Source of the DNA: Haematobacter genomosp. 1 | GTDB taxonomy: Bacteria; Pseudomonadota; Alphaproteobacteria; Rhodobacterales; Rhodobacteraceae | Reading direction: 5' to 3' | DNA: 64,000 nucleotides | Assembly: GCF_002196855.1 (NCBI RefSeq) | Contig: NZ_NIPW01000027.1 | Location: 1-64,000 of the forward strand | Part shown: positions 1 through 4,437 of the stretch, one piece after another | Layout of the letters: each line of letters opens with the position of its first letter | Numbering within the stretch: the first letter of the stretch is position 1 | Made by a program: the position numbers and the translations under genes | Notes under the pieces: model-generated | The model's input: only the letters and a program-made list of their open reading frames with translations | What the model was told of the DNA's origin: nothing | Databases searched by the model: none

Positions 1-1426
1 CGGGCGCGGGCGCAGCGGTCACACGGGGCGGCCGCGCCTGAGGCCAGCCGGTCGCCAGATGCCAGGCATGGCCCGCGCGCAGCACCGCCGCATCCGCGCC
101 CGCCCGCCCGATGAGCTGCATCCCCATCGGCAGTCCCCCATCGCCGAAGCCCACGGGGACAGAGAGGGCGGGCAGGCTCGCAAGGCTCGCGGGGATGACC
201 ACCTCCATCCAGCGGTGATAGGTGTCCATCTGCCGCCCCGCCACGGTCTCCGGCCAGCGCCACTCCGCCGGGAAGGGCCAGACCTGCGCGGAGGGCAGCA
301 CCAGCAGGTCGAACCGCTCGAACAGCCGCGCCGCATGGGCATACCAGCGGCTGCGGACCACGCTGGCATCATAGGCGGCCACGGCGGAAAGGCCCGCGCC
401 GCGCTCCACCTCCCAGATGGTTTCCGGCTTGGTCAGGCGGCGCTTTTCCGGGTCGCTGGCGAGCGCGGCCTTGCTTCCGGCCGAGAGCATGGCCCGAAGG
501 GTGATCCACGAGTCCCACAGTTTCTCCGCCGGGAACGGCGGGGGAAGCGGCTCCACATGGGCACCCATCGCTTCCATCTGCCGCAGTGCCGCCTCGCACA
601 GCGGCAGGATGCCGGGTTCCATGGCATAGGCCCCGCCCCAGTCGCCCAGCCAGCCGATACGAAGTCCGGCGATCCCCCCGTCCAGCGTCGCGGCCCAGTC
701 GGCATTCGGGCGCGGGAAGGGCTTTTCCGGGTTCTCGCCCGCGATCACGGTCAGCAGGCGGGCCAGATCCTCCACGTCGCGCGCCATCGGCCCGTTGGTG
801 GCGAGCGTGGAGAAGAACCCGTCCCCCTCCGCCTCATCCGCTACAAGGCCCCATGTCGGGCGGAAGCCATAGACGTTGCAGAAGGCCGCGGGGTTGCGCA
901 GTGACCCCATCATGTCCGATCCGTCCGCCGCCCAGACCATGCGCGCCGCCAGCGCCGCCGCCGCACCGCCGGAGGATCCGCCCGCGCTGCGCGACAGGTC
1001 GTAGGGGTTCAGCGTCGTGCCGTGGACGGGGTTGAACGTATGGCTGCCCTGCCCCCATTCGGGCACGTTTGTCTTGCCGGTCAGGATCGCGCCCGCCGCC
1101 CGGATCCGCTGGGCAAGCAGCCCGTCCTTCACCGGAACATGCCTGGCATGGAGCGGTGAACCCCAGGTGGTGCGGATCCCTGCGGTGAGCGCCAGGTCCT
1201 TGATCGCGAAGGGAATACCATGAAGCCATCCCTGCGGCGGCGTATCGTCCAGCGCCCGTGCCTCCGCCATCAGCACCTCCGGCTCGCGGGGGGAGACGAT
1301 GGCGTTCACGCTTCCGTTCACGCTGTCGAGTCGCGCCAGATAGGCCGCCATCACCTCGGAGGGTGCGACGGATCGCGCATGGATCAGCGCCGACAGGCGG
1401 GTGGCGGACAGTTCGGTAAGTTCCAT
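1..1426 (-). CDS. Amidase (amidase signature family), 3' end beyond the window
   Basis: Predicted cytoplasmic amide hydrolase of the Ser-cisSer-Lys amidase family. About 475 residues are visible and the frame is still open at base 1, so the C-terminus is missing. The family triad can be read directly: Lys76 in PFAIKDL, Ser151 in SAGGSSGG and the nucleophile Ser175 in GSLRNPA. The position usually held by GGGS reads DMMGS, a variant common in broad amidases. The ATG at 1424-1426 follows a GAGAAGG-like ribosome site. It points the same way as the ABC importer and CoA genes upstream but is separated from them by about 1.6 kb, so membership of that operon is uncertain. A role in releasing an acid or ammonia from an imported amide is inferred from context. 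The substrate cannot be read from sequence. Confidence 0.9.
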   Translation of the reverse strand, partial: MELTELSATRLSALIHARSVAPSEVMAAYLARLDSVNGSVNAIVSPREPEVLMAEARALDDTPPQGWLHGIPFAIKDLALTAGIRTTWGSPLHARHVPVKDGLLAQRIRAAGAILTGKTNVPEWGQGSHTFNPVHGTTLNPYDLSRSAGGSSGGAAAALAARMVWAADGSDMMGSLRNPAAFCNVYGFRPTWGLVADEAEGDGFFSTLATNGPMARDVEDLARLLTVIAGENPEKPFPRPNADWAATLDGGIAGLRIGWLGDWGGAYAMEPGILPLCEAALRQMEAMGAHVEPLPPPFPAEKLWDSWITLRAMLSAGSKAALASDPEKRRLTKPETIWEVERGAGLSAVAAYDASVVRSRWYAHAARLFERFDLLVLPSAQVWPFPAEWRWPETVAGRQMDTYHRWMEVVIPASLASLPALSVPVGFGDGGLPMGMQLIGRAGADAAVLRAGHAWHLATGWPQARPPRVTAAPAP

Positions 1427-2047
1427 GTCGATGCGATGCCTTCTCTTTTCGGTCGCGTGCCGTAGCCGGTGTCAGATGAGCCTGAATCCGCCGCGCCGTC
1501 CAGCCCGGCGACGCGAAGGCTCTGGCCATATACCGCTCGCTGCCGCGCGGGGGGGAAGCGGTCCCTCCTTGGGAGGCTGACGAAGTGGCATGCCGATGCG
1601 CGGTAAATCGGCCCGGAATGGCTGGATTTCCGGGTGGATTCTTCAGATTGCGAACGATTTCCCCTCCAACGCAGACCTGTAGGGCGGCGGTCGGGCCGCA
1701 GGGGGATCCGCATTCCCGCGCCGGAACGTGCCTTGCCGCCAGCGCGCGCAAGGGGAAATCTTTGACGGGTCGGAACAGCCGGACTCTATGCATTCCCCGC
1801 GTGCCAAGGCGAAGCCGACGGATGCCCCAAGGCATGGTCCGCGGAACAACTCCCCGAGCGCGAGGCGAAGCCTCCTCCTTCCGGGAAGGCTCCATGATCT
1901 GCGATATGCAGCGCCGTCATGCGCCGTCATGCAGCGCCGTCGCGCGAGTACGAAATCCCACGCGATGACCGAGGGTGGCCGCGTGCATCCTGATCTCTCG
2001 CACATGAAGGGGATACCGATACCGGCCCGCAGCTCGTGAGAGCAGCC
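1427..2047. other. Gene-free stretch upstream of the amidase
   Basis: No open frame here has recognisable protein features. Part of it (about 1571-1683) is a degraded copy of the short IS5-derived element found elsewhere in the window. Near 1905-1940 there are short direct repeats of GCCGTCATGC. The stretch should also contain the amidase promoter if that gene is transcribed alone, but I see no convincing promoter boxes. Confidence 0.5.
1571..1683 (+). mobile_element. Degraded IS5-derived short element (copy E)
   Basis: The core resembles the element at 29096-29253 in the same orientation. Shared blocks include AATCGGCCCGGAA, TGGATTTCCGG and a GCGAACGATTTCC-like block followed by TCCAACGCAGACCTG. 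The left terminal repeat is eroded (GGAGGCTGACGAAG) and the right one is missing. The boundaries are approximate. Confidence 0.5.
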
Positions 2048-2781
2048 CGCTCCATCCCCCGCGCGCGGGCCAAAGGGCCCAGGCGGTCGAGAACACCGCG
2101 TACGGGGTGAGAGCGCTCCATCCCCCGCGCGCGGGCCAAAGGGCCCGCCAGCTTGGGTTCACGACCCTGGCCTCCGCCATCCCCGCGCGTGCGGGTCAAA
2201 GCCATTGGAGATCCACCCCTCGCGCCTGTCCGTCGGCCATGCTCACGCGCGCGGCCAAACGCCAGACAGAAGATACGCTATCCATGCACGTCAGCCACCC
2301 CCCCGCGCGTACGGGCCGAACCGGATCGTGCCGCCAACGCCGCCAGCCAGAAGGCCCATCCCCACGCGTGCGGCCCAAGCTGCCTATGCCAGGATCTAAT
2401 GCCGCGCGCTCCGGGCCATCCCCACGCGCGTGCGGCCCAAGCCGCGGCAGCGGGAGGACGGCCATGGATTTCGAAGCGCGCGCGGGCCAAGCGCTCCATG
2501 CGCTGGCGCCATTCCCGTAGCGGTGCCATCCCCACGAGCGTGCGGGCCAACCTCCGTATTCTGGCGGCTGGCGCCTTGTGATGGACCATCCCCCGCACGC
2601 GCGGACCAAGCCTATGAGGCATCCTTGGCGTTCCCATCCAAGAACCATCCCGCGCGCGGGCCACGAGGGACGTTTATGGGGTATTCCGGGTGCTTCCTGT
2701 TGAACCATCCCGCGCGCGGGCCAAGAGCATGCGCTGGGGCCATTGCTGCAGCGGCGCCATCCCCGCACGCGTGGCCAAAAG
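2048..2781 (-). CRISPR. Decayed type I-E-like CRISPR array, about 13 degenerate repeats
   Basis: On the plus strand a motif close to CCATCCCCGCGCGTGCGGGC plus CAA recurs from 2052, 2118, 2177, 2237, 2295, 2356, 2416, 2526, 2586, 2645, 2705 and 2757. A poorer copy ends at 2490. Spacing is mostly 58-61 bases, as expected for a 28-29 base repeat with a 31-33 base spacer. Read on the minus strand, the repeat resembles type I-E repeats: a GC palindrome ending in GGGGATGG. The first two copies share 33 identical bases (2048-2080 and 2114-2146); the rest have drifted. Most intervening sequences are unrelated to one another. No cas gene is in the window, so this looks like an abandoned array. A degenerate 60-base minisatellite is the main alternative. 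Confidence 0.65.
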
Positions 2782-2892
2782 CTTTGACATCGCGTTCGGC
2801 CTATGGACCCGCAGATGTTCTCCCGGAGCGTATCACGCCCGCGGTGCAGCTTGGACGCCGCTTGTTCCAGAGCAAATGGTGGGTGAGCGGCA

Positions 2893-2943
2893 TGTCAGGT
2901 ACTCCGGCATGTCCTTCTACCGGGAATGCCGGAGTACCTGACA
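2893..2943. repeat. Perfect 18-bp inverted repeat (hairpin)
   Basis: TGTCAGGTACTCCGGCAT at 2893-2910 is the exact reverse complement of 2926-2943, with a 15-base loop. It lies about 70 bases beyond the stop codon of the MaoC-like gene on the minus strand. It could end that transcript, but no T-run follows on either strand, so a different function (protein site, RNA stability element) is equally possible. Confidence 0.8.
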
Positions 2944-3012
2944 CGGTCGCCACCACAGCAAGGGATTCGCCCATACCGCGCGGCTGGCAGCCGGTTATCG
3001 CGATGGATGCCG

Positions 3013-3945
3013 TCAGGCCGTGGCAGCCGTATCCACGTCGCCCTTGTAGGAGTCTTTCAGGCTGGCGAGGTTCAGCAGCATCGTTGCTGCGGGCGCCGTC
3101 GTCCCGGGGCGGTAGATGGAGGAGCGGACCCACATGCTTTCCGTCCTGCGGCTGCCCGACAGGGCGACCACCTCCCGCGCGACCTCCAGAGGCTCGCCCA
3201 CGAAGATCGGGCCGTCGAGCAGCCGGATCTCCTGATCCGCGAACAGGCCGATGGCGGGGCCGCGCACCGGGAAGGGATCCTGCTTGTTGGTGTAGCAGAA
3301 CAGCACGCTCAACATCTCGAAAGGGATCACCGCCTCGCGCCAGGTCCCGACGGCACCCCGGTAGGCCGGCGACGGTTCGGTGATGCGGGACAGCTTCTCG
3401 GCCAGGCTGAACGGGTAGAGATGGCCCATGTTCTGATCGAAGCCCATGGAAATGGGGCGGCGGGGCGTCTGCATCCCCACCCGCACATCGGCGAGGATCC
3501 GCGCGCCCTCCAGCGGCGGCAGCGTCGCCATCCGTTCCTCCAGCGCCGAAACCGGATGATCGGGGCCGACGGAGAGGCTGCCGCGCAGAATCTCCGTCCC
3601 GTCCTCCCGCTCCATGCGGATCTCGGCCTTGTCGGGCGCGACCTGCCGCGCCATGGCGCGGAGCCGGTCACCCTCGAACGCGGGGTTGCGGAAATGGGCG
3701 GAGATACAGCCCGACGCCAGCCAGCGGTCTCCGAACAGGCGCACGGCCAGCGGGTCGAACTGGCTGAAATGGGTCGGCCCCTCGATCGTGCCGCCCTTGA
3801 AGCCCAGTGTCTGCGCCGCGCGGTCATCGTGGATGGAGGCGTGGCCGTCATAGTTCTGGGCAGAGAGCATCTGGACAGGCGCGCGAAGCGGCCCTGTCAG
3901 CCAACCATCGGTTTCGGTCAGTGGGGTGGGAAAGAGGCTGGTCAT
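3013..3945 (-). CDS. MaoC-like hotdog-fold acyl dehydratase/hydratase
   Basis: A 310-residue predicted cytoplasmic protein. Near residues 30-50 it carries a hydratase-like stretch with IHDD followed by GFKGGTIEGPTH, which resembles the MaoC motif placing a catalytic Asp and His over an acyl-CoA. The ATG at 3943-3945 has an ideal AAGGAGATGAG leader, so I prefer it to an in-frame start 44 codons upstream. The gene follows the acyl-CoA ligase on the same strand after 492 bases. With the ligase, carboxylase and CoA-transferase nearby, the natural reading is hydration or dehydration of a CoA-bound intermediate. That role is inference. The remainder of the chain has no motif I recognise. Confidence 0.7.
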   Translation of the reverse strand: MTSLFPTPLTETDGWLTGPLRAPVQMLSAQNYDGHASIHDDRAAQTLGFKGGTIEGPTHFSQFDPLAVRLFGDRWLASGCISAHFRNPAFEGDRLRAMARQVAPDKAEIRMEREDGTEILRGSLSVGPDHPVSALEERMATLPPLEGARILADVRVGMQTPRRPISMGFDQNMGHLYPFSLAEKLSRITEPSPAYRGAVGTWREAVIPFEMLSVLFCYTNKQDPFPVRGPAIGLFADQEIRLLDGPIFVGEPLEVAREVVALSGSRRTESMWVRSSIYRPGTTAPAATMLLNLASLKDSYKGDVDTAATA

Positions 3946-4437
3946 CTCATCTCCTTGCAAGGGTTGCGCGGCGGCTGGTCTGGAGCTGTCCGCTGGCAGG
4001 ACTGGGGCGGGAGGCCGCGTCTCGGGCCGGGCGCCATGGAGAGATCGCTCCCCCTCCGGTTTCCGTGGGGCCGACATACCGGCGCGCCGCCTTTCCCAAT
4101 GTCGGAGGCAGGGGCTCCGGGCGGTCGTGTCCCGCAGATCGAAGCACGGCCGCGAAGTGAGGCGGCTTCCGCAGGCAAAGGCTCCGGTCAGACGTTGAAC
4201 GGCACAGGGGATGGCGGAGCGCGCTCACCTCCTGCCGCAGCCGGACACGCCCTTTCAGACTGGCATACCCTTTCAGGCTGGCACACCCGTTGAGACCGGC
4301 GTGCCCCTTCAGACTGGCGTGCCCCTTCGGACTGCCACGCCCCTTCACCGGGTCGCGGTCGCTCGACAGTTGACGCAGAGACCCGCCACGGCTCCATCGC
4401 CCGCCGGGCGCGAGCACCGGCATCGCCAGAGCCGCCA
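3946..4437. other. Gene-free gap between acyl-CoA ligase and MaoC-like gene
   Basis: No convincing gene. Frames crossing it show six-residue periodicity that only reflects the 18-bp tandem repeat at 4251-4340. The last bases before 3945 hold the ribosome site of the MaoC-like gene. No clear promoter or terminator is visible. Confidence 0.5.
4251..4340. repeat. 18-bp tandem repeat, five copies
   Basis: Units start at 4251, 4269, 4287, 4305 and 4323 and follow the pattern CCCTTCAGACTGGCGTGC with a few changes per unit. The region lies between genes. Because the period is a multiple of three, all frames stay open, which creates false reading frames here. Confidence 0.85.

What the first reader, a model, noticed from the sequence alone, without database searches (positions are those of the whole stretch)
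2048..2781. Decayed type I-E-like CRISPR array without cas genes
About 13 GC-palindromic motifs recur at a 58-61-base period with mostly unrelated sequence between them. Period, repeat length and the GGGGATGG end of the minus-strand repeat fit type I-E, but the repeats have drifted far apart. Two neighbours share 33 identical bases. Drift of repeats with conserved period suggests an array that lost its cas genes long ago, or an array-like system with relaxed repeats. Plain minisatellite origin is less likely because the intervening sequences differ.
Basis: partly seen in the sequence, partly recalled or inferred. Interest (0 to 1): 0.7.

Follow-up and report, generated by a model that had tools for sequence, protein, structure and literature searches.

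The report
Dead, mutation-worn CRISPR array
This stretch of bacterial DNA is the worn-out remains of an old CRISPR virus-memory bank whose machinery is gone: a fossil rather than a working system, of interest mainly because a second fossil bank in the same genome holds pieces of the bacterium's own genes.

Summary
Thirteen degenerate palindromic motifs lie at window 2052-2779, mostly 59-60 nt apart, with unrelated intervals. The genome is a Haematobacter. H. missouriensis carries the orthologous array between the same genes, with homologous spacers in the same order and whole-unit gains and losses. Neither genome has type I-E Cas3, Cas7e or Cas6e; a third Haematobacter genome has an intact I-E operon and a 67-repeat array of 61-nt period, and its repeat picks out the window array. 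Repeats, spacers and flanking non-coding DNA changed at similar overall rates and the hairpins are not kept, so this looks like neutral decay. One spacer matches a conserved motif of a phage portal gene. A second decayed array, outside the window, has six spacers matching the genome's own DNA (potA-like, dnaK, dcuC-like, flgC, two other sites), with the matches confined to spacer intervals. It is a new member of a known kind; self-derived spacers beside cas loss are the interesting part.

The parts
2052..2779 (-). Whole decayed CRISPR array, 13 degenerate repeats; drawn on the minus strand because the I-E repeat of G002 reads GGGGATG.. that way
2048..2080 (-). Repeat 1 with flanks; 33 nt identical to 2114-2146
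2114..2146 (-). Repeat 2 with flanks; 33 nt identical to 2048-2080
2177..2200 (-). Repeat 3, the copy closest to the array consensus (one mismatch) and the highest-scoring one with the G002 I-E repeat
2201..2236 (.). Spacer 3; 20-nt core identical in H. missouriensis and in a phage portal gene
2237..2259 (-). Repeat 4 (decayed)
2296..2320 (-). Repeat 5 (decayed)
2356..2378 (-). Repeat 6
2416..2440 (-). Repeat 7
2476..2490 (-). Repeat 8, half deleted
2491..2525 (.). Spacer 8; duplicated as spacer 12 (2725-2756)
2526..2550 (-). Repeat 9
2586..2609 (-). Repeat 10
2645..2664 (-). Repeat 11, shortened
2705..2724 (-). Repeat 12, shortened
2757..2779 (-). Repeat 13

Best explanation
Window 2052-2779 is a non-functional relic of a type I-E-like CRISPR array. 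A common ancestor of this Haematobacter species and H. missouriensis had it as a memory array of roughly 61-nt units. The I-E cas genes were lost, and without Cas6e and Cascade the array cannot be processed or used; point mutations, slippage in the C/G runs of the repeats and recombination between units have been wearing it down at about the pace of neighbouring non-coding DNA. SHOWN: orthology with spacer order kept, whole-unit gains and losses, similar overall divergence of repeats, spacers and flanks, no I-E Cas3/Cas7e/Cas6e in either genome, hairpins not kept. INFERRED: subtype I-E (repeat sequence, unit length, live system in a third Haematobacter), the order 'cas loss, then decay' and its date before the species split, phage origin of spacer 3, and the lack of any present function.
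For: Thirteen motifs with unrelated intervals. Orthologous array in H. missouriensis between the same genes; spacers 2, 3, 4, 5, 7, 8 (truncated) and 10 have partners in the same order. No I-E Cas3/7e/6e in G000 and G001 while G002 gives full-length matches; no Cas1 in G001 and only a type II fragment in G000. G002: 67 exact 28-nt repeat cores, 65 of 66 spacings 61 nt, and that repeat gives 5 peaks in array 1 against 0.07 expected. Events per compared base between the two species: repeats (15+16)/178, spacers (37+7)/243, upstream non-coding (73+13)/583, downstream (28+7)/183; the two neighbouring genes 4.4% and 4.5% substitutions. Hairpins no more stable than in neutral simulations. Repeats already differed before the split: non-orthologous 15.7% against orthologous 8.4% substitutions. 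Spacer 3 core exact in a phage portal gene, in frame on IHPSR, a motif found in 46 of 52 related loci. A companion array (L025) with spacer-confined matches to the genome's own DNA shows real spacer capture in this genome.
Against: The consensus (CCAT...GGGCCAAA) is not the G002 repeat, and no intact copy of it was found in 295 genomes, one per genus, of the family. The G002 repeat finds only 1 peak in the H. missouriensis locus and 2 in array 2. At the same place in H. massiliensis there is no recognisable array. By substitutions alone repeats changed less than spacers (8.4% against 15.2%), which could be read as constraint, though repeats have about three times as many indels. Four of five array-1 spacer patterns had no viral match, and no array-1 spacer matches the own genome beyond chance.
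Confidence: 0.88

Rival explanations
1. A GC-rich palindromic minisatellite or REP-like element array that only resembles CRISPR.
For: Repeats are degenerate and no cas gene is near; other degenerate short minisatellites lie in intergenic DNA of this genome (L025 3430-3590).
Against: Intervals unrelated, of near-constant length (32-43 nt, 9 of 12 being 35-37 nt); an independent I-E repeat picks out the array; spacer 3 fits a phage gene; the companion array holds spacer-sized pieces of own genes.
Confidence: 0.05
2. A still useful orphan array: hairpins or spacers are kept because some RNA or regulatory role is under selection.
For: The array persists in two species; substitutions in repeats are fewer than in spacers (8.4% against 15.2%).
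Against: Spacers change as fast as flanking non-coding DNA; counting indels, repeats do too. Hairpins are not kept: 84% of neutral simulations are at least as stable in G000, all 300 in G001. Whole units come and go.
Confidence: 0.05
3. A relic of another CRISPR type (II or I-F) rather than I-E.
For: G000 holds a fragment of a type II Cas1; a 60-nt unit would also fit type I-F (recalled).
Against: The GC palindrome with GGGGAT fits the I-E repeat of G002; type II and I-F repeats, as I recall them, look different; no direct repeats of array kind near the Cas1 fragment.
Confidence: 0.06

Closest known systems
Intact type I-E system of Haematobacter genome G002 (probably H. massiliensis; L027)
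   Same: GC palindrome with GGGGAT, unit length near 61 nt, unrelated spacers
   Different: G002 has cas3, cas8e, cas7e, cas6e, cas1e and 67 exact repeat cores; the window array has no cas genes and no intact repeat set
Orphan or degenerate CRISPR arrays in general (e.g. as handled by CRISPRDetect, PMC4869251, passages seen)
   Same: CRISPR layout without cas genes; worn repeats
   Different: Published handling, in the passages seen, centres on worn repeats at the end of otherwise good arrays; here every unit is worn, and an ortholog in a second species allows rates to be compared
Lactobacillus acidophilus NCFM array (as described in the review PMC6990116, passage seen)
   Same: Several self-matching spacers together with loss of the cas cassette, like array 2 of this genome
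   Different: Here two arrays are worn down and the loss appears to predate a species split; cause and effect are unknown
CreTA degenerate ectopic repeats (PMC9458426, passages seen)
   Same: Degenerate CRISPR repeats outside normal arrays
   Different: CreTA has one or two repeats and needs an active Cascade; the window array has 13 and no I-E machinery

Membership tests
CRISPR array | Repeats at regular spacing with unrelated spacers of near-constant length | tested here: met
   13 motifs, spacings 50-66 nt (10 of 12 between 59 and 66), one duplicated interval pair among 78
CRISPR array | Nearly identical repeats | tested here: not met
   Mean pairwise substitution 11.0% in G000 and 19.5% in H. 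missouriensis, plus indels
CRISPR array | Spacers taken from other DNA | tested here: inconclusive
   Array 1: one probable phage portal match, other patterns without hit. Array 2: six matches to the own genome, control none
CRISPR array | Transcription and processing to crRNA | not testable with these tools
   No RNA data
Type I-E CRISPR-Cas | I-E type repeat and 61-nt unit | tested here: met
   G002 I-E repeat gives 5 peaks against 0.07 expected; unit near 60 nt. Weak for the H. missouriensis copy (1 peak)
Type I-E CRISPR-Cas | cas3 and Cascade genes in the genome | tested here: not met
   Cas3, Cas7e, Cas6e absent from G000 and G001, present in G002. Cas8e, Cas11e, Cas5e and Cas2 were not searched
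Type I-E CRISPR-Cas | Cas1e adaptation gene | tested here: not met
   Cas1 family search: none in G001, a type II fragment in G000
Type I-E CRISPR-Cas | Leader beside the array | not tested
   No leader model used
Minisatellite | Whole unit, interval included, homologous between copies | tested here: not met
   Interval pairs unrelated except one duplication; Tandem Repeats Finder silent
CreTA-like ectopic repeats | Active Cascade in the same cell | tested here: not met
   No I-E effector genes among those searched

The most novel reading that the evidence does not exclude
The Haematobacter lineage holds a readable fossil of autoimmune CRISPR death: array 2 took up several pieces of the cell's own genes (dnaK, potA-like, dcuC-like, flgC), either because interference was already broken while adaptation still ran, or as the event that made loss of cas advantageous. 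Two decayed arrays in two species, set against the intact system of a third, could let the order and timing be read.
Probability: 0.3. Interest if true: 0.6.

Novelty: new member of a known kind. Interest (0 to 1): 0.42.

Why it matters
Cas-less arrays are known, but here one is caught late in decay with an orthologous copy in a second species and a live system of the same genus for comparison. That gives a measured example of how an array wears away once its machinery is gone. The self-derived spacers of the companion array make the proposal that self-targeting drives CRISPR loss testable in one small genus.

Tried and rejected
Phage and plasmid collections with the arrays: nothing convincing. 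Rfam on window 1400-3400: one sub-threshold match (E 0.32) at 2893-2943, none at the array. Self-matches of array 1 and of its H. missouriensis ortholog: best E 0.009 and 0.03 respectively in their own genomes, not aligned to spacers in the three array-1 cases shown, so treated as chance. Intact counterpart of the array-1 repeat: 4 of 295 family genomes have a match with up to 3 mismatches, namely G000 itself (2 places) and three others with one place each; the backwards control pattern also hits three genomes once each. Those 295 are one per genus, so G001 and G002 were not among them. Hairpin selection: not supported. PAM of the self-matches, read by eye: no consistent motif. Viral contigs: one hit for spacer 3; 0 for four other array-1 patterns, 0 for the array-2 potA spacer, 0 for spacer 3 reversed. 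In one search the array-2 repeat bounds had been tidied by eye, after the self-matches were seen; the automatic bounds, made before, agree at the units concerned. Two of the six matches fit less tightly: the flgC one ends flush but sits in an 87-nt interval that must hide a lost repeat, and the C32 one lies inside a 39-nt interval. A survey for further decayed arrays in G000 was only partial: 151 forward and 145 reverse matches against 65 and 49 for the control, the listing being cut. Names of the genes next to the arrays were read by eye from translations, not tested (the attempt failed). Papers: PMC6990116, PMC4869251 and PMC9458426 seen as passages; all others as search listings only. No listing in those five searches described these Haematobacter arrays; I looked no further.

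Full report
Observation. The window lies in genome G000 (4.2 Mb, 81 contigs). I call it Haematobacter because the two nearest relatives of a gene beside the array are H. missouriensis (95%) and H. massiliensis (91%) and G001, in the same genus, is H. missouriensis (contig length 106,035). At 2052-2779 there are 13 GC-palindromic motifs (consensus CCATCCCCGCGCGTGCGGGCCAAA), mostly 59-60 nt apart, one truncated. Of 78 interval pairs two pass z 3.5: 8/12 clearly and 4/5 weakly. Units 1 and 2 share 33 identical nt. Tandem Repeats Finder does not report the array.

Orthologous array. Of 41 genomes searched with the region, 4 match at E 0.001 or better: G000, G001, and G015 and G038 with one and two short matches (26-52 nt, E 1.7e-4 to 6e-4). 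In H. missouriensis (G001) the array lies between the same genes, also with 13 motifs. Spacers 2, 3, 4, 5, 7 and 10 of G000 have partners there in the same order, spacer 8 has a truncated one, and the DNA after the last repeat matches too. No partner was found for spacers 1, 6, 9, 11 and 12 of G000 or for 1, 3, 4 and 9 of G001; each species has one duplicated spacer. Alignment shows whole units gained or lost at repeat borders, as recombination does to CRISPR arrays (established knowledge). At the same place in H. massiliensis (L038), between the same genes, no array can be recognised.

No machinery. A joined query of G002's Cas3, Cas7e and Cas6e finds nothing in G000 or G001 and full-length matches in G002. 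Cas8e, Cas5e, Cas11e and Cas2 were not searched. A Cas1 family search finds none in G001 and one short match in G000; that piece scores best with type II Cas1 (102 bits, below the model's cut-off of 120, positions 109-213 of 278), so it is a fragment. G002, probably H. massiliensis (inferred: the third of three genomes held for the genus), has Cas3, Cas7e, Cas6e and Cas1e and Cas8e, and an array with 67 exact copies of a 28-nt repeat core, 65 of 66 spacings being 61 nt. Its repeat used as an outside probe gives 5 peaks in array 1 against 0.07 expected from the rest of the window. The same probe gives only 1 peak in the H. missouriensis locus and 2 within array 2, so subtype assignment rests mainly on the window copy.

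Mode of evolution. Between G000 and G001, eight orthologous repeat pairs show 15 substitutions and 16 indel events in 178 compared bases; seven interval pairs 37 and 7 in 243; upstream non-coding DNA 73 and 13 in 583; downstream 28 and 7 in 183; the neighbouring genes 4.4% and 4.5% substitutions. Left out: the second partner of unit 7, the truncated pair 8/12, and for intervals also pair 1/1; the 'interval' of the last repeat is flanking DNA. Counting both kinds of event the rates are similar (17, 18, 15 and 19 per 100). By substitutions alone repeats look slower (8.4% against 15.2%), but they have about three times the indels, and gapped alignment of C/G runs hides substitutions. Hairpins are not kept: 84% of 300 neutral simulations are at least as stable as the 12 full repeats of G000, and all 300 for the 13 of G001. 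Non-orthologous repeats differ more across species than orthologous ones (15.7% against 8.4%), so the repeats had begun to diverge before the split. Together this reads as neutral decay.

Where spacers came from. A 20-nt core of spacer 3, identical in both species, occurs once in the viral collection, in frame in a portal gene (Phage_portal_3, E 3.4e-81; PHROG 146 portal protein); 27 of 36 positions of the interval agree. The codons fall on IHPSR, found in 46 of 52 related viral loci (not found in 6); other relatives agree less (24 of 36 or fewer). The reversed pattern has no hit, but neither have four other array-1 patterns. I take the phage origin as probable, not proven. Named phages and plasmids gave nothing convincing.

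A second fossil. On G000 contig C2 (L025 1888-3399) lies a decayed array of about 25 units with another consensus, GGCCAGCCCCCGCGCGCGGACGGAGG. Its intervals are unrelated (276 pairs, best z 4.5, mean 0.1). Against the own genome six stretches match below E 0.01 (best 3.3e-6; identity 88-93%), none for the same DNA written backwards (best 0.011). The six cover 191 nt, of which 2 overlap repeats, although repeats make up 45% of the array; none of 20,000 random placements did as well (limits of this test in Tried and rejected). The places matched: a potA-type ABC transporter gene, dnaK and flgC, a DcuC-family carrier gene, a protein without Pfam or PHROG match, and a place without a clear gene. 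A seventh, at E 0.011, is in a LysR-type regulator gene. H. missouriensis keeps only a more worn remnant. About 27 spacers of G002's intact array gave no self-match below E 0.01 outside its CRISPR locus. A review gives self-targeting spacers as 0.4% of all spacers in one survey and names L. acidophilus NCFM as having deleted its cas cassette with six such spacers (PMC6990116, passages). Whether the self-spacers here caused the loss, or came after interference had failed, cannot be told.

Conclusion. The finding is a decayed, cas-less, type I-E-like CRISPR array. It most likely does nothing now. It meets the layout and repeat-type tests and fails those for repeat identity and cas genes, so it is filed as a relic and not as a working member. 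Novelty is modest; the two-species comparison and the self-derived spacers of array 2 give it moderate interest.

Noticed in passing
L025 1888-3399 (G000 contig C2, about 253,890-255,400; outside the window): Second decayed array of about 25 units with a different consensus; six spacers match the genome's own DNA, among them dnaK, flgC and a potA-type gene.
   Followed up: yes
L027 4719-4809 and 4954-4982 (G002 contig C8, between cas3 and cas8e): Two degenerate I-E repeats about 61 nt apart inside the intact cas operon, followed by a strong ribosome-binding site and a four-codon reading frame; looks like a CreTA (CRISPR-regulated toxin-antitoxin) module (resemblance judged by eye, no test).
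   Followed up: partly
L026 1009-1377 minus (G000 contig C16): Fragment of a type II Cas1 with no array-like repeats in the first 4.5 kb of the contig; a second lost CRISPR system.
   Followed up: partly
window 2893-2943: Perfect 18-bp inverted repeat with a 15-nt loop just beyond the array; worn in H. missouriensis.
   Followed up: no
window 4250-4347 and L025 3430-3590: Degenerate short minisatellites (18-nt unit in the window) in intergenic DNA near both decayed arrays.
   Followed up: no
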